Positions 1 to 11,117 of a stretch of DNA of 29,087 nucleotides are shown one piece after another. Source of the stretch: a virus. Each line of letters starts with the position of its first letter. Positions within the stretch are counted from its first letter, which is position 1. The notes under the pieces are model-generated. The model searched no databases. It saw only the letters and a list, made by a program, of their open reading frames with translations, and was not told the origin of the DNA. Made by a program: the position numbers and the translations under genes. The stretch is taken from IMG/VR virus record IMGVR_UViG_3300020205_000009, positions 1-29,087 of that record; one strand, written 5' to 3'.

Positions 1-1073
1 ACAAAAGTTCTAAACTCTTCAAGATGATCTAGTTTATCTATAACCATTTGCTTGACTGCTTGTAGTTCTTTGTATAAGGCAAGCATTGTTTTAAATTTAT
101 AGACATTATTAAGTAAATAGTTTTCGCTCATGTAAACAAGATTGCGTTTCTTAGTTAAGTTATCTGCTGTCTTGATCTTGGCGAGTTCTTTACTCATTTT
201 TTCGTGATAGAAATTAATTAGTTCGCTGATTGTTTCATCAATGTTGCTGACACTTCTAGCATTTTTAATTTGACTATTAAAGAATTGCTTTAGATAAGAT
301 GAGATATGAAATTTTGAATCTCCAGTCGTACCAAAATTACTCACAAGATCATCCAAAAAATCTCCACATAGTTGACACATGCGTTCAATCTTCTGAATAT
401 ATTGATCAAACTTTCTCATTTCTGTTGCCGAAAATCCAACACGATCCATAGGTGTATCATTCTCAACTATTAATACTTCAGGAACTTTTGCGTAAGATTT
501 TACTGGTGCTCCTGCCATCGCTTGCATAGTTGGCAAATCATTACCAACATAATGAGTATGAAACACCACACCAATTTTTGCTCTTCCAGATTTTCTACCA
601 ATATCGTGATCAATAGGTATACCATAAGTAATGGTGTTTGGTCTAAATGTGTATAGTTGTTCTCCGTCTATTGTCTCTCTCTTAATGGTATCGTTTGTAA
701 ATAAAAGATCTCCCTGAATAACTCCATTAATACCAAGAAGACTAAAATATTTTAAAGAGTATTTGAGTTTTTTAGCAAGGTCGCCATCATACCATTCATC
801 AATCTGTTCGTCTACGAAGCAGAGTTTAGGTTGAGTCTTTGCGAATACAGATTTTGTGCCAACAAAAAACATTCCACTGGCAGGATCTGTGCCACAAATA
901 ACAGACGGAGCACCATCCCATTTTGTCTGCATAAACCCTGCGCTCTCTTGATGTCCCAACATCTTACGAAGTTCTTTTAAAAAGGACACCGCTGCGTTAC
1001 AACCCTCAATTCCGTAATTGAGCATCTCATCTTCTAAATGTTCTAAGTGTTTGAGTTGAGTTACATTTGCCAT
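1..1073 (-). CDS. Conserved phage protein with a KWDG nucleotidyltransferase-like motif (3' end outside window)
   Basis: Reading the minus strand from the ATG at 1073 gives 357 codons without a stop, running off the left edge, so the C-terminus is missing. The start overlaps the stop of the upstream nuclease-like gene as TAATG, which indicates translational coupling. The N-terminal domain holds K51-W-D-G54, followed by VGTKSVFAK at 71-79, QGDLLF at 120-125 and KIGVVFHTHY at 166-175. This order resembles motifs I, Ia, III and IV of covalent nucleotidyltransferases (ATP-dependent DNA/RNA ligases, capping enzymes), where the Lys of KxDG takes AMP. I see no clear motif V. Residues about 210-357 are charged and look helical. 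I recall similar proteins in cyanophages annotated only as domains of unknown function. Coding status is near certain; the ligase-like reading is inference. Confidence 0.85.
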   Translation of the reverse strand, partial: MANVTQLKHLEHLEDEMLNYGIEGCNAAVSFLKELRKMLGHQESAGFMQTKWDGAPSVICGTDPASGMFFVGTKSVFAKTQPKLCFVDEQIDEWYDGDLAKKLKYSLKYFSLLGINGVIQGDLLFTNDTIKRETIDGEQLYTFRPNTITYGIPIDHDIGRKSGRAKIGVVFHTHYVGNDLPTMQAMAGAPVKSYAKVPEVLIVENDTPMDRVGFSATEMRKFDQYIQKIERMCQLCGDFLDDLVSNFGTTGDSKFHISSYLKQFFNSQIKNARSVSNIDETISELINFYHEKMSKELAKIKTADNLTKKRNLVYMSENYLLNNVYKFKTMLALYKELQAVKQMVIDKLDHLEEFRTF

Positions 1074-2512
1074 TAGGACACCTTAATGAAAGGGGCAGAG
1101 TCATCAGAAGCTGATGTCGCATACAAATAAAGTTTTGTTGTGAATTCATTTCTTTTCTGTGGAGTTCCACTCATTAAAACATCACACAACTTCAACCCAA
1201 TATATTTTGAAAACTTCCACTGAGTTGACATACTCTTAATTAAATTTACATCAACTACTTCTCCTTGTTTCAAAACATTACTAGATCTTTTGGTGGCAAG
1301 TTGAAATAATTTTTGATCTAATCCACCATTTTTTGAAGCTGTGGCAATACTCTTCACATCGGAATACTCATCAAATATTCCATTTCCCGTTCCATAAATT
1401 GATTCCAATAGATAGTTAACAACGCCTCCACCAACTTTACCATGCTTCGCAGTTACTCCAACAATTTCTCCTTGCCAAGTGCTACCATCCCCAGCGGTGT
1501 CTCTAAATTGGGTTTTATATCCTTCGCCTGTTAGGTAAATATCAATTGATCCATATAAACTTTTGGATTGAATACTTTGAAATTTCTTTTGTTCTTCCAA
1601 TCTTGAAGAATGTCTAGTAAAATTATATGCTTTTATAGATGCTTCCCCAGAAACTTTTTTCAAAGAAACGCCAATCAATCTTTTTTCTTTAAGTAGATCC
1701 AATAACACTTTATTGTATCCACCTTGAAATGTCATTTCATTTGTTAAAATTTTCATATCAGTAATAGAACCATCATACATCCATATATCAGCTGGAGACC
1801 ATTTATTAATATCACTAAATGGTCTACCATTTGCTTTATTTACTTTTCTGAAATGATTTGAAACTGGGTCTACAATGCCAGTTCCACGATAAAATTTAAA
1901 ATTATCATTTGTGTAAGATTGATATGAAAGTAATTTATTTGCTGTCTTAATGCTAGATTTCATCCAATCAGAATTATCTACTAGGTATTGATGTATCGCT
2001 TCCATTGATTTATTTGTAGATACCTTTGCCTTTACTTTTTCAAAATCAGCAAGTGTTATTTGATATTCTTCATCTATTGCTTTATTTAAAGAATATCTAT
2101 AAGCAAGAACCCAACATGCTGCTCCCTCAAATAAAGCAGTATTATCAGCACCTCCTCCCGATCCTTTATTACTTCCAAATGCTATAGTCTTCTTAATATT
2201 TGTTAGAAGAATGTCAGTTGATACATTTTTCTTTCCTTGTTTTTTAATTTGTTTTAATATTTTTTTACCAGTATATTTTGCGGCAAAATTATTTTTATTT
2301 GTCTTGTCTGGAGAAGCAAATAACATTTTTCCATCAATTACATTCTTCATATCTTCCAGAACATCAGCAGATGTTTGTATGAGGGCACTACCACCACTCA
2401 CAACTTCCAACATATCTCTGTTGACAATAGCATCATAAAGAACACGCAAGCGAATACCGCCCCCTGAATCGGTGGCTGGTTTGCCATAATCGCCCATCGT
2501 CATTCCTGCCAT
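1073..2512 (-). CDS. Putative PD-(D/E)XK-type nuclease, conserved phage protein
   Basis: A 479-residue protein I do not recognise by name. It carries an arrangement like type II restriction-endonuclease folds: an acidic residue in a hydrophobic helix (LFEGAACWVLAY, E130), then KWSPADIWMYD with D242, then LIGVSLKK with S283-L-K285. This fits the E...PD...(E/S)xK pattern in which D and K bind metal and activate water. The N-terminus is Gly-rich (residues 17-19) and has several Met codons (1, 4, 6). The ATG at 2497 has an AGGA about six bases upstream, so the protein may be five residues shorter. A late-promoter-like AATAAATA lies just upstream and a tRNA-Ser precedes it. The stop overlaps the next start (TAATG). 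An alternative is a virion-associated protein with no nuclease role. Confidence 0.8.
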   Translation of the reverse strand: MAGMTMGDYGKPATDSGGGIRLRVLYDAIVNRDMLEVVSGGSALIQTSADVLEDMKNVIDGKMLFASPDKTNKNNFAAKYTGKKILKQIKKQGKKNVSTDILLTNIKKTIAFGSNKGSGGGADNTALFEGAACWVLAYRYSLNKAIDEEYQITLADFEKVKAKVSTNKSMEAIHQYLVDNSDWMKSSIKTANKLLSYQSYTNDNFKFYRGTGIVDPVSNHFRKVNKANGRPFSDINKWSPADIWMYDGSITDMKILTNEMTFQGGYNKVLLDLLKEKRLIGVSLKKVSGEASIKAYNFTRHSSRLEEQKKFQSIQSKSLYGSIDIYLTGEGYKTQFRDTAGDGSTWQGEIVGVTAKHGKVGGGVVNYLLESIYGTGNGIFDEYSDVKSIATASKNGGLDQKLFQLATKRSSNVLKQGEVVDVNLIKSMSTQWKFSKYIGLKLCDVLMSGTPQKRNEFTTKLYLYATSASDDSAPFIKVS

Positions 2513-2544: not shown

Positions 2545-2627
2545 CGGAGAGAACAGGAATCGAACCTGCGAAGCTTTTACACCCAGCCGCTTTCAAGGCG
2601 GTGTCCTCGACCAACCGGACTCTCTCC
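2545..2627 (-). tRNA. tRNA-Ser (anticodon UGA)
   Basis: An 83-base class II tRNA. The 5' acceptor strand GGAGAGA (2627-2621) pairs perfectly with TCTCTCC (2552-2546), followed by discriminator G at 2545. The anticodon loop CTTGAAA (2597-2591) gives anticodon TGA at 2595-2593 in a CCGC/GCGG stem. A long variable arm of about 16 bases and a T arm GCAGG-TTCGATT-CCTGT follow. The 3' CCA is not encoded and must be added by the host enzyme. It would read UCA (and probably other UCN) codons. Phage tRNAs of this kind usually supplement host decoding. Confidence 0.93.
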
Positions 2628-2633
2628 AATAAA

Positions 2634-2810
2634 TCACCAGTGTCTGATGACACCAGCAATGATGTAACAATTAGTTATAAAGTATGTAGTGAGGATAAAT
2701 GTCCTCAACCAAGCAACGGCATCAGATTCACGATCACAATCACTTGCCTTCTGACCTAATGCCTTTGCCCACACACGCCATAAGCGTCTACGATATTTCC
2801 TAAAGATCAT
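2634..2810 (-). CDS. Small conserved membrane protein
   Basis: A 58-residue protein starting at the ATG at 2810, eleven bases inside the end of the MazG-like gene; an upstream in-frame start exists but would lengthen the overlap. The N-terminus is strongly basic (RKYRRRLWRVW), followed by an acidic patch (SDCDRESD) and a hydrophobic segment at about 33-54 (AWLRTFILTTYF onwards), ending RHW. This predicts one transmembrane helix with a basic cytoplasmic N-terminus. Its place at the end of the gp43-UvsX-gp41-MazG series suggests co-expression with the replication genes. No function can be assigned. Confidence 0.65.
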   Translation of the reverse strand: MIFRKYRRRLWRVWAKALGQKASDCDRESDAVAWLRTFILTTYFITNCYIIAGVIRHW

Positions 2811-3204
2811 CTTCAGCACGATGCTCTGAGTAGTAGATATCAAACTGACCACCTGGATAACGCTTCTCCAGTTTCTTTACATTACGAGCAAGAACTTCAT
2901 CAAACGTAACACCAAGAGCCAGAGTTGCCTGTGCCACATACCACATAACATCTCCAAGTTCAATAATCATATGCTCCCGATTATCTTCATTGAATGGTTT
3001 GCCTTGAAAGATCATCTTCTTAATGATCTCAAGGAACTCACCACCCTCAGCATTAATGCCGACACCAGCAGTAAGCAATCGTTCAATATTGGCACCCTTA
3101 GAATCCAACTCAACGAGGCGATCAGAAAGGGCAAGAAAATCTGTTGAAGCATCACTAGTAACGGCATCAACAAATTTTTGGTAGCGTTTAAAATCAATAG
3201 TCAT
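2800..3204 (-). CDS. mazG: MazG-like nucleotide pyrophosphohydrolase
   Basis: A 134-residue protein of the all-alpha NTP pyrophosphohydrolase group, which hydrolyses (d)NTPs to monophosphates plus pyrophosphate. Visible metal-binding helices are AEGGEFLEIIKK (ExxE pattern, about residues 52-63) and IIELGDVMWYVAQ (ExxD pattern, about 80-92), the paired signature of MazG/MazG-like enzymes. The single-domain length suits phage MazG. Its ATG overlaps the gp41 stop as ATGA (3201-3204), so it is translationally coupled to the helicase. Cyanophage MazG has been proposed to alter nucleotide or ppGpp pools during infection; the substrate cannot be read from sequence. Confidence 0.88.
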   Translation of the reverse strand: MTIDFKRYQKFVDAVTSDASTDFLALSDRLVELDSKGANIERLLTAGVGINAEGGEFLEIIKKMIFQGKPFNEDNREHMIIELGDVMWYVAQATLALGVTFDEVLARNVKKLEKRYPGGQFDIYYSEHRAEDDL

Positions 3205-4583
3205 AGGAATTTTTCAAATTTACTTATACGATTTTTGTTATCAAAGATTCCAACATTGGCATCCTCTTCAAGGAAATCAAGATCGGTTGACAGGTCACTG
3301 CCGTCTCCAACATTATAGAGCTTCATCTTTGCCCTGTCAATACCCACCTTGAACTTTCTTCTGTCAGTGGGATCGTTGTATCTGTTCTTCAACTGCTTCA
3401 CCATAATGGTTCCTTCTTGCTCAAGTTCCTCCGTGGAGATAAGCGCAAACATAAAGTCAGCAGTAGCAGGTAGACCAAACGATTCGGAAGTATCAGTCAG
3501 TTCTAGATCAGTGTTACCAAATCCAGATCGTGTTGTCTGTGTGGCAGACATAATAGGCACCTCATACTTCACAGCAAGACCACGAAGTTCCTCAGCAATA
3601 GACTTCACGAATGTGTAAGAGTTCACGATTGAACCTTTGAGTCTTGCTGAGTTACAGATGTTCAGATAATCAATGAAGATGATGTCTGGTTTGAATTCTT
3701 TCTTGAGAGAAAGTTCATTCAGAAGTGATTGGAAGTGACCAGCATGTGCTGAAGCAGTTGGATATTCTTTAATGATTAACCTACCGCGAGTCTTCTTTGC
3801 TAGTTCTTCTACAGCACCCTTGAATCTAAACTCAGGAATGTTAGGAAGATCTTTGATGTTAGTGTCTAGAAGGTGTGCGTCAATGCGCTCAGCAATCTTT
3901 TCCTCTGCCATCTCTAGAGTGATGTATAGGACATTGTATCCATCCATCAGGCAGGATCCAGCAAGGTGACACATGAACAGAGACTTACCTACACCAGTGC
4001 CAGCAAGACAGATGTTCAGGGTCTTCTTGGGCAGACCACCCTTAGTGATGTAGTTGAAGTTATCAAGATCAAAAGCAATCTTTTGTTCTTCTTGATGCAT
4101 GAACCGCCAACGCTGTTCAATACATTCTAAGTAATCGTGTCCGATGTGTTCATCGAACGATACTGCCAGGGCCTCTTGTAAGATACTTGGGATCGCATCC
4201 TTTGATAGTTTCTTATCACTTCCTTCCGCGATCTTGACTGAGGATAGAAGCGCATTGTAGATGGCACGTTCCTGACACCAACGCTCTGTCGCATCAACGA
4301 GCCAGGGATAATCAATCTCATCAGACGAAAACGCCCCGACCATCTCAACAGAGCGTTTAAGATCCTCTTCAAAGATATCTTTGCGAGAGTTAAGTTGAAG
4401 AATGATAACTTCTTTCGTGGGGATCTTTTCATATTTAACAGAAAAATCATAGATCTCTTCATAAATTAATTTGTCAACTTGTTCACCAAAGTAATCTGGT
4501 TTGATATGTGGAATAACCTTGCGGTAATACACAGGATCATTCAATAGACTGCGAAGAATAGTATTCTCAAGTCTTTCACTCAT
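3201..4583 (-). CDS. 41: gp41 replicative DNA helicase (DnaB family)
   Basis: A 460-residue hexameric 5'-3' helicase of the T4 gp41/DnaB type, close to the T4 length of 475. The N-terminal domain (about 1-150) is helical. The RecA-like motor domain has Walker A GTGVGKS near 195-201, a conserved Glu in YITLEMAEE, Walker B DIIFIDYLN and an arginine-rich C-terminal stretch (KQLKNRYNDPTDRR). I chose the ATG at 4583, which has GGAG about ten bases upstream; a TTG two codons earlier (4589) is possible. The start lies inside the UvsX stop region. It unwinds the fork ahead of gp43, with loading and primase functions expected elsewhere in the genome. Confidence 0.93.
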   Translation of the reverse strand: MSERLENTILRSLLNDPVYYRKVIPHIKPDYFGEQVDKLIYEEIYDFSVKYEKIPTKEVIILQLNSRKDIFEEDLKRSVEMVGAFSSDEIDYPWLVDATERWCQERAIYNALLSSVKIAEGSDKKLSKDAIPSILQEALAVSFDEHIGHDYLECIEQRWRFMHQEEQKIAFDLDNFNYITKGGLPKKTLNICLAGTGVGKSLFMCHLAGSCLMDGYNVLYITLEMAEEKIAERIDAHLLDTNIKDLPNIPEFRFKGAVEELAKKTRGRLIIKEYPTASAHAGHFQSLLNELSLKKEFKPDIIFIDYLNICNSARLKGSIVNSYTFVKSIAEELRGLAVKYEVPIMSATQTTRSGFGNTDLELTDTSESFGLPATADFMFALISTEELEQEGTIMVKQLKNRYNDPTDRRKFKVGIDRAKMKLYNVGDGSDLSTDLDFLEEDANVGIFDNKNRISKFEKFL

Positions 4584-5586
4584 CTTCAATCACTCCGTAT
4601 TTGAATTTCTTTGCCAGTTCAGAATCGATCTGTTCTAAAATTTCTGGTGTGAAGAATTTTTCAGGGTCTTTCATAATCTCTTTACCCCAATGCTTCTTAC
4701 CATCAATCTCATAACGACCGGCACTACTGGGCCAGGGAGTCCAGTCTAGCAGACCATGATACCTTTGTAAACCCCTAGCGTCAAAGAAGAGTTGAACCTC
4801 TGCCTTAGATCCTTCCTTGGTCAGACGGGACTTTTTCGCCTCGCATTTAATAATGTTTCCGACATGTTCTGTTCCATCCTTTTCTTTCTTCTTTGATAGA
4901 AAGACAATAGAAGAAGCGGCGTACTTAAGACCGCTACCGCCGCCCATCTCTTTAGTAGGTACATAAGATCCAATTACATCGTAGGTATGGTTTGTCATTA
5001 ACATGGGGATTCCTGCCTTACCGAGTTTCATAGTAAGCACTCGGAAAGTAGATTTCACAATCTGAGACTTGGTAAAATCTCTAGCTTCGCTGCCTTTCAC
5101 AGCATCATCAACTTCTTTTTGTGTAGGTAGATTACCTAGACTATCCAAGATAAACATCATTGGTTTTTTATTATCTTGACTCAAATAGTTGTCAGCAATC
5201 TTGACAGATATTTCACGGAAGTGTTGAATGGTATCCACTGGATAAAGTAGGACACGAGAGGTATCGATACCTCTTGACTCAAACATATCTGATGAGATAG
5301 CAGATTCACTTTCAAAGTAAACCACCATAGCATCAGGATCACCATCAAGAAAATGCTTAACGATGCTTAGACAAAAGTAAGTTTTGCCAACTCCACTTTC
5401 TCCTGCTAGAGCAGTGATTTTATTGGCAGGGATACCGCCATAGATTGAACCGCTAAGAATAGCATTGAGCATATAAGATCCGGTGTCAATATAACCGCTG
5501 ATATCTCCAGCAGCAACTCCATCAGATACAAATCCGACGTATTCGTTTTTACTTTCTTTGATTATATCGTCTAGAAATGTTTTCAT
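4576..5586 (-). CDS. uvsX: UvsX RecA-like recombinase
   Basis: A 336-residue strand-exchange protein, shorter than T4 UvsX (391). Walker A GESGVGKT is at 62-69, Walker B MMFILD at 143-148, and MLMTNHTYD plus a Gly-rich KEMGGGSGLKYAASS loop (DNA-binding L2 region) follow. It forms filaments on ssDNA, assisted by UvsY, for recombination-dependent replication and repair. It lies two bases after the gp43 stop and its end overlaps the gp41 start, placing polymerase, recombinase and helicase in one transcript. The acidic C-terminal tail (VIEDE) is typical of RecA-family proteins. Confidence 0.95.
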   Translation of the reverse strand: MKTFLDDIIKESKNEYVGFVSDGVAAGDISGYIDTGSYMLNAILSGSIYGGIPANKITALAGESGVGKTYFCLSIVKHFLDGDPDAMVVYFESESAISSDMFESRGIDTSRVLLYPVDTIQHFREISVKIADNYLSQDNKKPMMFILDSLGNLPTQKEVDDAVKGSEARDFTKSQIVKSTFRVLTMKLGKAGIPMLMTNHTYDVIGSYVPTKEMGGGSGLKYAASSIVFLSKKKEKDGTEHVGNIIKCEAKKSRLTKEGSKAEVQLFFDARGLQRYHGLLDWTPWPSSAGRYEIDGKKHWGKEIMKDPEKFFTPEILEQIDSELAKKFKYGVIEDE

Positions 5587-5588
5587 AT

Positions 5589-8090
5589 TTAAAAGAAGCT
5601 AAGGACTGATATGGTTTTTTCGGACTTCCATCCGATAGAGTCTAACACATTTTTAATTGGTTTGAAGAATTTCTTTTCGAATTGTAAGGAATAGTCAACA
5701 TAACCATCAAGATTAAACTCCTTTGGAATCTCACCAAAGAATGCGATTACCTTTTCGCCAATTGGATTTGGATTCTTTAGGTATAGATATTTAATTTTTT
5801 CTCCCTCCTGAATAGTTTGATACTTATATTCAATTTTATTTTTCTTGATCAAGTGATTGTAAATCAATGCACCCTTCACAGCAATTGGTGTTCCTGACGA
5901 CTCTCCCTGTTTATAAATGGTGTAGGGACTACGATACTTTGCGAGATTGTTTACGCCACTGGGGGTAGCAATAGAAGCATAATTTTGTTTCTTGCTATCC
6001 TTACGAACTGTATCAATGTATTCAATCAAATCTTCATTTGTTTTGTTAATGATAATCGTGTAGGCAGCAAACAATTTATCTCGGAAGTATTGCGGGGTAG
6101 ATGATCGTGCTGTCTCAAGGCCACATATCTTGAGTTTAGGTTGCTTGTATCTAACACCTTCACTATCCCATACGTTAAGGGCATAGCGTTTCTTGGCGGT
6201 CCAGAATCCACGACTAGCGATATTCTCTCGCTTCATCTTCATCTTCTGTTCGTATGCGTTCACATAGTCCGCCAACGTTTGGTAAGAACTTTCAATAAAA
6301 GGTTCAAGTTCCACCGCACACACCTTGTCAAGGAAATTAACAATTTGCTCATCAGTTTTCTCTCTTCCTTTGAGTACAGTTTCAACAAAAGGACCCAGAT
6401 TAAGATACATGCTATCGGTATCCATAGCAATAACATAGTCAACATTATCAGTCTTCAGAATTTTATTTAAGTTGTCGTTCATACATCCAGCAATCCATCG
6501 GATAGATAGCTGACCGGATAGGGTAATTGCTTCAGCAATCTCCAGCATATAATAACGGAAGTGCTGGTTACCAATCGCACCATAGGCAGAGTTGAGGGAG
6601 ATCTTCTTTGCCATCTGAATGTTATTGTAACGAGAAATATCTTTCATCAACTGAATCGTTGGTGTCTTCTCGTATTGCTGCTTTGCCGCAAGCATCTTAT
6701 CCTTGTAGATCACACGCTCATCATACATCTTCTTCATCATCTTAGGAAGAAATCCCTGCTTGGTAGTATCGTAATACGTGCCATTAGCACAGAGAGTTTC
6801 ATTCTTAAGATGAGAAAGATCAAGATCTCTATTCAGAAGACGATCTACATTCACGGAGGAATGACGATGATCCAGCAGAGTCTCTGGGGAGAGATTATAC
6901 TGCATGATCAAGTGAGGATACAGAGAGTTAAGGTCAAAAGAAACCACCCAGTCATAGATGCCTGGGATAGGTTCTTTAACATATGCGCCAGCATACTTTC
7001 TATTTTTCTCAGATTGAGACTTTGGCGGAATAACAATATTGTTCTTCATCAGTTCAATGTAGATGTAGTTATCCCACATACGAACTTGAGAGAACACATC
7101 CTCAAAGTTTACTTTAGCATCGTATGCCATAGTAAACGCCAGATCAAGAAGCTTCATCTTATCATCAAGTTGATCCACAAGGCGAACGTCACGAATGTTG
7201 TATTCGATAAACTTCTGCCAATTGTTTGTATAGAACTCTTTGAATGTATCATATTCAGAGTGATCCAGTTTCTGGGCACCGAGTTCTATAAAACATATGT
7301 GGTTCAGGGCATAGGATTCTTGGTTGGTATAGGTAAACTTTTTGTAAAGTTGAATGTAGTCTAAGATAGACATACCTAGAATATCACAAGCAGTTTGCTC
7401 TTTGTTATTGATTTCAATCTTACGAGTTGATACCAACCGCCATGGTGAAAGCATCCGAAGATACTTATCACCAAGAATCCGAACAATACGATTGGCGATA
7501 TACGGCATATCGAAGAACTCTACGTTCCAACCTGTGATCACATCAGGATAGTTTTCTACCCACCAGTGAACAAAGTTAGTAAGCATTGCTTGTTCATCTT
7601 TGAAGTGTAGATAGTCCACATCTTCAAAGTTGTTATCGAATGCTTGTGCTCCCCAGCAAGTAATCCTACCGCTGTAGGAATCTTTCAAACTGATCGCAAG
7701 AATTGCTTGGTCAGCAGTTTCAATATCAGGGAATCCATTCTCAGCTGCCGTCTCGATGTCAATATTAAATACACGAATCATAGAGGCGTCGTATTTAATT
7801 TCTTCTTCAGGGTGTTCCTCAGCAATGTATTGATAGAGGTATCGTGTGTTTCCATAAACAGGAACATCTGTTTTAGAACATCTCTTTACGAAATCTTTTG
7901 CCTCTTCAATTGATGCTTGAGGAACAGGAGCAACTAGTTCTCCCTGAAGTGTTCTCCACTCGGAATAGTTACGAGTTTTGATGTAAAGGGTTGGGGCGAA
8001 GGGGACACGTTCAGTAATCCTCTTCCCCCCCTGATACCCCACCGCCAGCAGGCGATTCCCCGCTTGTTCTATCTTCGTGTAAAACTTCAT
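5589..8090 (-). CDS. 43: gp43 family B DNA polymerase with 3'-5' exonuclease
   Basis: An 833-residue replicative polymerase (T4: 898). Exonuclease motifs are complete: D111-I-E113 (Exo I), NVEFFD with D194 (Exo II) and YNIRD with D301 (Exo III), so proofreading should be active. Polymerase motif A is DLNSLYP (386-392), motif B runs KKISLNSAYGA (495-505) and motif C is DTDS (557-560). The final residues SVLSFF resemble the clamp-binding tail of T4 gp43, matching the gp45 clamp in this window. The first 80 bases overlap the upstream LSm-like gene. The start at 8090 is supported by family-like N-terminal sequence (KFYTKIEQAGNRLL), although no strong Shine-Dalgarno sequence is visible. Confidence 0.97.
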   Translation of the reverse strand: MKFYTKIEQAGNRLLAVGYQGGKRITERVPFAPTLYIKTRNYSEWRTLQGELVAPVPQASIEEAKDFVKRCSKTDVPVYGNTRYLYQYIAEEHPEEEIKYDASMIRVFNIDIETAAENGFPDIETADQAILAISLKDSYSGRITCWGAQAFDNNFEDVDYLHFKDEQAMLTNFVHWWVENYPDVITGWNVEFFDMPYIANRIVRILGDKYLRMLSPWRLVSTRKIEINNKEQTACDILGMSILDYIQLYKKFTYTNQESYALNHICFIELGAQKLDHSEYDTFKEFYTNNWQKFIEYNIRDVRLVDQLDDKMKLLDLAFTMAYDAKVNFEDVFSQVRMWDNYIYIELMKNNIVIPPKSQSEKNRKYAGAYVKEPIPGIYDWVVSFDLNSLYPHLIMQYNLSPETLLDHRHSSVNVDRLLNRDLDLSHLKNETLCANGTYYDTTKQGFLPKMMKKMYDERVIYKDKMLAAKQQYEKTPTIQLMKDISRYNNIQMAKKISLNSAYGAIGNQHFRYYMLEIAEAITLSGQLSIRWIAGCMNDNLNKILKTDNVDYVIAMDTDSMYLNLGPFVETVLKGREKTDEQIVNFLDKVCAVELEPFIESSYQTLADYVNAYEQKMKMKRENIASRGFWTAKKRYALNVWDSEGVRYKQPKLKICGLETARSSTPQYFRDKLFAAYTIIINKTNEDLIEYIDTVRKDSKKQNYASIATPSGVNNLAKYRSPYTIYKQGESSGTPIAVKGALIYNHLIKKNKIEYKYQTIQEGEKIKYLYLKNPNPIGEKVIAFFGEIPKEFNLDGYVDYSLQFEKKFFKPIKNVLDSIGWKSEKTISVLSFF

Positions 8091-10139: not shown

Positions 10140-10279
10140 TTCATAAGTCCAGTTACACCAACAACTTTGGCAGTAGGATTACGGGCGAGTGCCGTCTGCC
10201 GAGCATCCTGATAGTTTGCCGCTTCAACAATCTCGTCAAAGACTTTACCGGCAACATAGAGTTGAACTTTAATTTTCAT
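10136..10279 (-). CDS. Small conserved hypothetical protein (47 aa)
   Basis: Starting at the ATG at 10279 gives 47 residues beginning MKIKVQLYVAGKVFDEIV and ending KVVGVTGLMK. The upstream in-frame extension overlaps the methylase more deeply and looks non-coding. It starts just before the Dam stop (10269) and ends in an ATGA overlap with gp62. The alternating pattern with a central helix (NYQDARQTALARNP) suggests a compact alpha/beta fold. I recall similar small proteins next to gp62 in other T4-like cyanophages; no function is known to me. Confidence 0.75.
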   Translation of the reverse strand: MKIKVQLYVAGKVFDEIVEAANYQDARQTALARNPTAKVVGVTGLMK

Positions 10280-11117
10280 AATTAATAAGGACGAGTTCCT
10301 TTCGTTGTGCTTGATCCATTGTATACGATCCAGTGGACCGCATGGTGTAGGTGTGTGCAAATTCAGCATCTGTCCACCCCTGGTCCAGAAAGCGTCCCTT
10401 GACCTCGTTTGACGAATTGTAACTAATACACATTGGCATATTCATGTTCTGCTTACAATCTACACAGAACTTTTCGTGATCAAATCCTTTATGCATTGAT
10501 CCTTTTTTGCCATAAAGATTATCTTTGATGTCGTAGGGTGGATCCAGATACATAAACGCTTTACTATCACAATCCATAAGAAACTCGTATGGACTATTGG
10601 TAATACGCCATTTCTGTATCAACTTGCTGTATTCAGGAAGTCTTTGAATGCCAGTCAAAGAGAAATTACTTACACTTGCCTGCTCAGAGAAAGAAGAAGA
10701 TTCCGTGAGTCCAGAGAAAGAACATTTGTTCACGATATAGAAACGAACAGCTCTCTCAAACTGACCTGTGTTGGGTTCATTCAAAATTTGCCGAGAGATC
10801 TTAAACAACTCTCTAGCAGATTCTGGATTGGGAGCATTGTTTTTAAAGTGCTCAAGGTGGATCGCTAGGTCATCGCCAAACTGCTGGAGGATCACCCAGA
10901 AGTCATAGAGAGGACCATAAAGGTCATTAACCCACACAGGCAGGTCAGGGTATCGCTTAGAGACCTCTAGGGCAACGCTACCGCCGCCTAGGAAGGGTTC
11001 CCGATACTCGCGATACCCACTTAGGTCAGGGAAGAAACGAAAGAGACTAGGGAGCGCCCTAGACTTCCCTCCAGGATATCGAAGCGGGGTCTTCAATGAT
11101 TTAGTAGTCTTGAGCAT
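10269..11117 (-). CDS. dam: DNA adenine N6-methyltransferase (Dam, D12 class)
   Basis: A 282-residue enzyme transferring methyl groups from S-adenosylmethionine to adenine N6 in DNA. The N-terminal LRYPGGKS (12-19) and PFLGGGSVALE (41-51, SAM-binding FxGxG) plus LDPPYD (DPPY 192-195, catalytic) are in the order of the D12/Dam class. T4 Dam recognises GATC, but the target here is unknown. There is no restriction partner in the window, so protection from host nucleases or marking of phage DNA is more likely than a restriction system. It is embedded between clamp-loader genes gp44 and gp62 and overlaps its neighbours on both sides. The start at 11117 lacks a strong ribosome-binding site. Confidence 0.93.
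   Translation of the reverse strand: MLKTTKSLKTPLRYPGGKSRALPSLFRFFPDLSGYREYREPFLGGGSVALEVSKRYPDLPVWVNDLYGPLYDFWVILQQFGDDLAIHLEHFKNNAPNPESARELFKISRQILNEPNTGQFERAVRFYIVNKCSFSGLTESSSFSEQASVSNFSLTGIQRLPEYSKLIQKWRITNSPYEFLMDCDSKAFMYLDPPYDIKDNLYGKKGSMHKGFDHEKFCVDCKQNMNMPMCISYNSSNEVKGRFLDQGWTDAEFAHTYTMRSTGSYTMDQAQRKELVLINYEN

What the first reader, a model, noticed from the sequence alone, without database searches (positions are those of the whole stretch)
1..1073. Overlooked edge gene with a KWDG nucleotidyltransferase-like motif
An open frame of 357 codons fills the left edge. It carries K51-W-D-G54 plus QGDLLF and IGVVF elements in the order of ATP-dependent ligase and capping-enzyme motifs I, III and IV. 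A ligase-like fold in a family otherwise described as unknown would give it a testable DNA or RNA end-joining or adenylation activity.
Basis: partly seen in the sequence, partly recalled or inferred. Interest (0 to 1): 0.62.

Follow-up and report, generated by a model that had tools for sequence, protein, structure and literature searches.

The report
Ligase-like enzyme hidden in cyanophage DUF6267
The gene at the left edge of this ocean cyanophage fragment belongs to a large protein family of unknown function (DUF6267) that looks like a highly diverged enzyme of the DNA/RNA-ligase superfamily, in viruses for which a ligase had been looked for and not found.

Summary
The window is a fragment of a T4-like cyanophage. 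The edge gene lies on the MINUS strand (1073→3), 357 codons, cut at its 3' end about 44 codons short. It is not overlooked: it is Pfam DUF6267 / phrog_455, present in about 470 phage records but without assigned function. The reading as a ligase-like nucleotidyltransferase survives both of its own refutation tests. The KxDG lysine is invariant in 290/290 distinct complete homologues, and AlphaFold models (pLDDT 93-94) have the right element order. For a short member the top 20 PDB Foldseek hits are all DNA/RNA ligases, though each alone is weak (E 0.02-0.35). One motif was misassigned: IGVVF is not motif IV. The real motifs IV (E370-G-x-V) and V (K382) lie in the missing C-terminus. No OB domain follows, no known ligase profile matches, and most DUF6267 phages searched carry no recognised ligase. 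New: DUF6267 is fused to, or next to, a HIGH-superfamily nucleotidylyltransferase, often with P-loop kinases; many relatives (not the window's clade) carry N-terminal leaders like T4 capsid-targeting sequences. Most likely it is an active lysine-adenylate enzyme acting on nucleic-acid ends; substrate and cofactor are untested.

The parts
3..1073 (-). DUF6267 gene, 3'-truncated (357 of about 401 codons): predicted divergent covalent nucleotidyltransferase
1029..1049 (-). N-terminal H9-L-E-H12-L-E14-D15 signature, family-wide (H9 289/290, H12 and E14 290/290), function unknown
912..923 (-). motif I K51-W-D-G54; K51 predicted nucleophile (Lys-AMP)
   Evidence: DSSP puts K51 at the end of strand 47-51
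843..860 (-). G72TKSVF77; K74 290/290, candidate for the basic residue that follows motif I in ligases
   Evidence: functional role inferred
699..716 (-). motif III-like Q120-G-D122-L-L-F; D122 289/290 (E in the remaining one)
   Evidence: strand 118-126
624..641 (-). P145-N-T-I-T-Y150, Y150 290/290; candidate motif IIIa
   Evidence: assignment inferred from order only
549..575 (-). I167GVVFHTHY175 strand; the H172-T173-x-Y175 end is conserved, IGVVF is not; not motif IV
1073..2512 (-). upstream neighbour P0002 (479 aa, phrog_1462, unknown), overlaps the DUF6267 start codon by one base; possible PD-(D/E)xK-type protein (PADIW ... GVSLKK)
   Evidence: nuclease idea is pattern only
2545..2629 (-). 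tRNA-Ser(UGA)
2800..3204 (-). MazG-like pyrophosphatase
3201..4589 (-). gp41-like replicative helicase
4576..5586 (-). UvsX-like recombinase
5589..8090 (-). gp43 DNA polymerase

Best explanation
The edge gene encodes a divergent covalent nucleotidyltransferase of the ligase/capping superfamily. Proposed mechanism: K51 of K-x-D-G attacks the alpha-phosphate of ATP (or the AMP of NAD+) to form a lysine-AMP. D122 (III), E370 (IV) and K382 (V) hold nucleotide and metal, and the AMP is passed to an acceptor, most likely the 5'-phosphate of a nucleic-acid end, which a 3'-OH can then attack. Shown: the gene, invariance of the catalytic-type residues, predicted secondary-structure order, collective fold match to ligases, location next to gp43-uvsX-gp41, linkage to a HIGH nucleotidylyltransferase and kinases. 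Inferred: Lys-AMP formation (about 0.8), nucleic-acid ends as acceptor (about 0.6), complete ligation (about 0.5). Lack of an OB domain after motif V makes it closer in layout to RNA ligases than to DNA ligases or capping enzymes.
For: K51, D53, G54, K74, Y150, K341, E370, G371 and K382 identical in 290/290 distinct complete homologues, D122 in 289/290; full-length relatives end in EGxV and K-[LF]-V-x-R, as motifs IV and V should. AF2 models pLDDT 93.2/pTM 0.89 and 94.4/0.88. Foldseek PDB, short form: ranks 1-20 and 34 of the 50 listed are DNA/RNA ligases: LigIV, Thermococcus and Sulfolobus DNA ligases, Naegleria RNA ligase (prob 0.72), archaeal RNA ligase, fungal tRNA ligase, LigA adenylation domains, T4 Rnl2, TbREL1. 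Replication-cluster context in cyanophages, pelagiphage HTVC008M and Methylophilales phage Melnitz. No PF01068, PF09414 or PF01653 ligase in 13 of 16 DUF6267 phage genomes.
Against: No single structural hit reaches E 0.001, TM-scores are low (0.2-0.3), and model coordinates could not be inspected. Profile-profile comparison with T4 Rnl1, Rnl2 and gp30 is null, with controls scoring alike. Motif I lacks the Arg of KxDGxR, motif III has Asp where ligases have Glu. DUF6267 coexists with recognised ligases in three phages (XG4, Vibrio 2.275, S-CREM1). No activity data.
Confidence: 0.65

Rival explanations
1. It is the missing cyanophage DNA ligase: it seals Okazaki and recombination nicks in place of T4 gp30, at the replication fork.
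For: Gene sits behind gp43-uvsX-gp41-mazG; g30 homologues are reported absent from cyanomyoviruses, with distant unidentified homologues named as one possibility (PMC2984593); 13 of 16 DUF6267 genomes lack recognised ligases; near-universal among cyanomyovirus records (371 Synechococcus + 61 'Cyanophage' records, against 376 + 61 with a gp43 match).
Against: No OB domain or motif VI; coexists with an ATP-dependent DNA ligase in Pseudoalteromonas phage XG4 and Vibrio phage 2.275; the host NAD+ ligase could do the job (the explanation preferred in PMC2984593).
Confidence: 0.22
2. It is an RNA ligase that repairs tRNAs or other RNA cut by host defence nucleases, working with the neighbouring kinases.
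For: Best Foldseek probabilities are to Naegleria RNA ligase, with archaeal RNA ligase, tRNA ligase, Rnl2 and TbREL1 also listed; no OB domain; relatives carry a zeta/PNK-like P-loop kinase directly downstream; tRNA-Ser gene nearby.
Against: The kinase resembles zeta toxin and AAA_33 more than T4 Pnkp; the window's clade has no such kinase adjacent; S-CREM1 and XG4 have DUF6267 beside a PF09414 RNA ligase; DNA ligases rank equally high.
Confidence: 0.25
3. It nucleotidylates something other than a nucleic-acid end (a small molecule or protein), in one pathway with the HIGH nucleotidylyltransferase.
For: Fusion with, or adjacency to, the HIGH domain in many genomes is unusual for a polynucleotide ligase; the HIGH domain carries SxTxxR-type motifs seen in NMN adenylyltransferases (assignment from general knowledge).
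Against: Replication-gene context; all leading structural neighbours are polynucleotide ligases.
Confidence: 0.25
4. A structural or regulatory protein that keeps the fold but not the chemistry.
For: The neighbouring HIGH protein is found in virions (PMC3037559, PMC9146016, PMC10665884), so the module may be virion-associated.
Against: Invariant lysines and acidic residues across members down to about 25% identity.
Confidence: 0.05

Closest known systems
Covalent nucleotidyltransferase superfamily (DNA ligases, RNA ligases, capping enzymes)
   Same: KxDG at the end of a strand, then acidic motif III, EGxV motif IV and Lys motif V in order; collective Foldseek match
   Different: no detectable sequence similarity; KxDGxP, QGD instead of xGE; helical insert of about 150 residues between IIIa and IV in long forms; no C-terminal OB domain
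Naegleria gruberi RNA ligase / T4 Rnl2 / archaeal RNA ligase
   Same: among the highest Foldseek probabilities (6vt1 0.72, 6vt0 0.69; 2hvr and 5d1o also listed); no OB domain required in the T4 Rnl2-like layout
   Different: hhalign to T4 Rnl2 null; PF09414 does not match any member scanned; different accessory domains
NAD+-dependent DNA ligase (LigA) adenylation domain
   Same: listed in both PDB searches (3jsn, 3baa); DUF6267 also has an N-terminal helical segment before motif I and is linked to a HIGH nucleotidylyltransferase
   Different: PF01653 absent from all 17 genomes searched; no recognised Ia domain, OB, Zn-finger, HhH or BRCT
T4 gp30 ATP-dependent DNA ligase
   Same: replication context; candidate functional replacement
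   Different: PF01068 does not match; no OB; gp30 has an N-terminal DNA-binding domain
Pfam DUF6267 (PF19782) / phrog_455 / cyanophage cluster T4-GC 71
   Same: full member
   Different: family had no assigned function in the libraries used; PubMed Central search for DUF6267 returned no paper

Membership tests
DUF6267 (PF19782) | profile score above curated cut-off | tested here: met
   357 bits against cut-off 27
Covalent nucleotidyltransferase superfamily | motif I KxDG with invariant Lys | tested here: met
   290/290; 114/114 in the KxDG-independent set
Covalent nucleotidyltransferase superfamily | acidic motif III, motif IV EGxV, motif V Lys in order | tested here: met
   D122 289/290, E370 and G371 290/290, V373 288/290, K382 290/290; IV and V are outside the window, read from homologues
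Covalent nucleotidyltransferase superfamily | ligase-type nucleotidyltransferase fold | tested here: met
   AF2 pLDDT 94; Foldseek top 20 all ligases, each individually weak
Covalent nucleotidyltransferase superfamily | covalent Lys-NMP intermediate | not testable with these tools
   needs biochemistry
ATP-dependent DNA ligase (PF01068) | profile match | tested here: not met
   no match in any of 14 family members scanned
ATP-dependent DNA ligase / capping enzyme | C-terminal OB domain with motif VI | tested here: not met
   only 19 residues after K382 (one helix) in the 401-aa model
T4 Rnl2-type RNA ligase (PF09414) | profile match | tested here: not met
T4 Rnl1-type RNA ligase | profile-profile match | tested here: not met
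   hhalign probability 1.4%, controls 0.1-1.2%; only the motif IV-V patch aligns
NAD+-dependent DNA ligase (PF01653) | profile match | tested here: not met
   no match in family members or in the 17 genomes
NAD+-dependent DNA ligase (PF01653) | use of NAD+ as AMP donor | not testable with these tools
   needs assay
T4-type packaged internal protein (capsid targeting sequence) | N-terminal leader of about 10 aa, M..F..(F/Y)(L/I).E | tested here: not met
   0/80 in the window's clade; met in 79 of 184 loci of other long-form clades and MAG-derived contigs

The most novel reading that the evidence does not exclude
DUF6267, the P-loop kinases and the HIGH nucleotidylyltransferase form one repair kit that in many marine T4-like phages is packaged in the capsid and injected with the genome. 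The ligase-like enzyme uses NAD+ (or another dinucleotide) as AMP donor, and the fused or adjacent HIGH enzyme remakes that donor from the released NMN and ATP, so that the phage carries a self-supplied end-sealing machine.
Probability: 0.12. Interest if true: 0.85.

Novelty: new variant of a known kind. Interest (0 to 1): 0.62.

Why it matters
T4-like cyanophages and pelagiphages are very abundant marine viruses, and a review of their genomes notes that no DNA ligase (gp30) homologue is known in cyanomyoviruses. A near-universal gene of unknown function in the replication cluster that is a hidden ligase-superfamily enzyme makes that question directly testable with one labelling assay and one lysine mutant. 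The fusion with a HIGH nucleotidylyltransferase, and the virion-leader sequences in relatives, point to a module not found described in the papers read here.

Tried and rejected
Sequence routes to known ligases: Pfam, PHROGs, NCBIfam, PDB sequence profiles (A1, A5) and hhalign against T4 Rnl1, Rnl2 and gp30 gave nothing above controls. Motif IV = IGVVF rejected (not conserved, wrong place). Foldseek with the long form alone would have been inconclusive, because the helical insert draws coiled-coil hits; the short form resolved it. Strict replacement of known ligases rejected: three phages have both. Own-genome retrieval of the missing 3' end impossible: the record ends at the window edge. A universal restriction-nuclease slot upstream of DUF6267 was not upheld: one neighbour (S-CAM9) matches a type II restriction enzyme profile at 8e-10, but others are a DnaB helicase or a desaturase, and the motif regex has a 26% background. 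Plasmid relatives: none for the syn9 protein.

Full report
Observation. The open frame is real: 3..1073 on the minus strand, 357 codons from the ATG at 1071-1073, running off the window at its 3' end. The window is itself the whole record of a 29,087-base virus contig, so the missing C-terminus had to be read from relatives: the 90%-identical L002 protein has 401 residues and S-RSM4 protein 064 has 400. The contig is a T4-like cyanophage (Kyanoviridae-type) with gp43, uvsX, gp41, mazG and a tRNA-Ser in the usual order.

The gene is known but unexplained. It matches Pfam DUF6267 at E 1.9e-106 and phrog_455, unknown function. tblastn finds relatives in about 470 phage records, nearly all cyanophages, plus Methylophilales, Pelagibacter, Vibrio and Pseudoalteromonas phages. 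The counts for Synechococcus and 'Cyanophage' records (371 and 61) are close to those with a gp43 match (376 and 61). A paper search for DUF6267 returned nothing.

Conservation. I gathered 290 distinct complete homologues and aligned them to the full-length relative. K51, D53, G54, K74, Y150, K341, E370, G371, K382, F389 and N393 are identical in all 290; D122 and Q120 in 289. Of these, 114 came from scans whose search patterns did not include KxDG, and K51 is identical in all of them. By contrast G168 and F171 of IGVVF vary. The order K-x-D-G, Q-G-D, (P-N-x-x-x-Y), E-G-x-V, K-x-V-x-R is the ligase order I, III, (IIIa), IV, V, with IV and V lying beyond the window edge, a little before the C-terminus.

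Fold. Two AlphaFold2 models were made from family alignments: the long form L002 (pLDDT 93.2, pTM 0.89) and the short form L275, which lacks most of the helical insert (pLDDT 94.4, pTM 0.88). The long form gave no clear PDB match because of its helices, but LigA adenylation domains and vaccinia capping enzyme appear at ranks 10-44. The short form gave a clear collective answer: the first 20 hits, and 34 of the 50 listed, out of 350,542 chains are DNA or RNA ligases of many lineages. Each hit alone is weak (E 0.02 and above, TM about 0.25), so the claim rests on this consistency together with the motifs. I could not inspect coordinates. Sequence methods do not see the link.

What sort of enzyme. 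After K382 there are only 19 residues and one helix, so no OB domain with motif VI: canonical DNA ligases and capping enzymes are excluded by layout. The long form inserts a helical bundle (about residues 216-351) between the IIIa region and motif IV. An invariant H-x-x-H-x-E-[DE] stands before motif I; its role is unknown.

Context. In S-RSM4, syn9, S-CAM9, S-H9-1, S-PM2 and others the order is gp43 - uvsX - gp41 - mazG - variable gene - DUF6267 - HIGH nucleotidylyltransferase. The HIGH domain (PF01467) is fused to DUF6267 in L198, L336 and S-PM2, and a HIGH-like domain that no profile scan confirmed follows it in L185, L203, L219 and L228. In the AJ630128 record of S-PM2 the fusion is split by a frame change. 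phrog_455 itself spans both domains. Of 286 loci with enough downstream sequence, 172 show a HIGH motif and 61 a P-loop kinase: one adenylate-kinase-like (E 7e-33), one zeta-toxin/AAA_33-like, the latter also fused to HIGH in L175 and L354.

Known ligases in the same genomes. PF01068, PF09414 and PF01653 were searched in 16 DUF6267 phage records with T4 as positive control for the first two: 13 have none; XG4 and Vibrio 2.275 have DNA- and RNA-ligase matches, S-CREM1 an RNA-ligase match. PMC2984593 states that g30 homologues are not found in cyanomyoviruses and offers unidentified distant homologues as one possibility, preferring host substitution. DUF6267 is therefore a candidate for that gap, but coexistence in three phages argues against a strict replacement.

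Virion link. In 77 of 352 DUF6267 ORFs, 49 of 183 HIGH ORFs and 33 of 90 kinase ORFs the N-terminus reads like M-x-S-F-K-Q-Y-L-N-E, against 76 of 1291 other ORFs (Fisher p 7e-17, 7e-16, 4e-16; loci overlap, so these p-values are optimistic). T4 ipIII begins MKTYQEFIAEA and ipI MKTFKEF; the first ten residues of IPIII suffice for capsid targeting (PMC9026906). None of the 80 closest relatives of the window gene has the leader. HIGH proteins were found in virions of S-SM1, S-SZBM1 and S-CREM2 (PMC3037559, PMC9146016, PMC10665884). No report of DUF6267 in a virion was found in the texts read.

Mechanism. Best reading: K51 takes AMP from a nucleotide donor, with D122, E370 and K382 forming the pocket, and passes it to an acceptor, most likely a nucleic-acid 5' end. 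Fold and residue conservation are computed results; Lys-AMP chemistry, donor and acceptor are inferences. The HIGH partner raises the testable possibility that the donor is NAD+ regenerated locally, but this is speculation: the HIGH subfamily was not resolved and only weakly matches a nicotinamide-nucleotide adenylyltransferase family.

Verdict. A new family within a known superfamily, with an unusual architecture and a direct experimental test.

Noticed in passing
L198, L185, L203, L228, L219, L336; S-PM2 (L085:4989-6768): DUF6267 is followed in the same reading frame by a HIGH-type nucleotidylyltransferase domain, in several versions (GAFKPPHRGH, GKFKPPHGGH, GRFQPMGQHH, GRMNPPTIGH).
   Followed up: partly
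L109:2951-4211, L148, L155, L175:4364-5683, L354:5194-6474: P-loop kinases (adenylate-kinase-like and zeta/AAA_33-like) stand between DUF6267 and the HIGH gene, or are fused to HIGH.
   Followed up: partly
L113, L105, L122, L170, L336 and other DUF6267 starts; downstream ORFs: N-terminal leaders resembling T4 capsid-targeting sequences on DUF6267, HIGH and kinase ORFs in clades other than the window's.
   Followed up: partly
L085:4989-6768 (S-PM2, AJ630128): S-PM2p138 and S-PM2p139 look like two pieces of one DUF6267-HIGH protein split by a frame change; BFVD holds a continuous 591-aa S-PM2 protein and tblastn covers the full length in record LN828717.
   Followed up: partly
window 1073-2512; L084:4246-4983: The gene upstream of DUF6267 is highly variable; S-CAM9's matches a type II restriction enzyme profile (8e-10), and several clusters, the window's P0002 included, show PD-(D/E)xK-like D...SLKK patterns.
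   Followed up: partly
window 10269-11117: DNA methyltransferase (phrog_56) in the same replication region.
   Followed up: no
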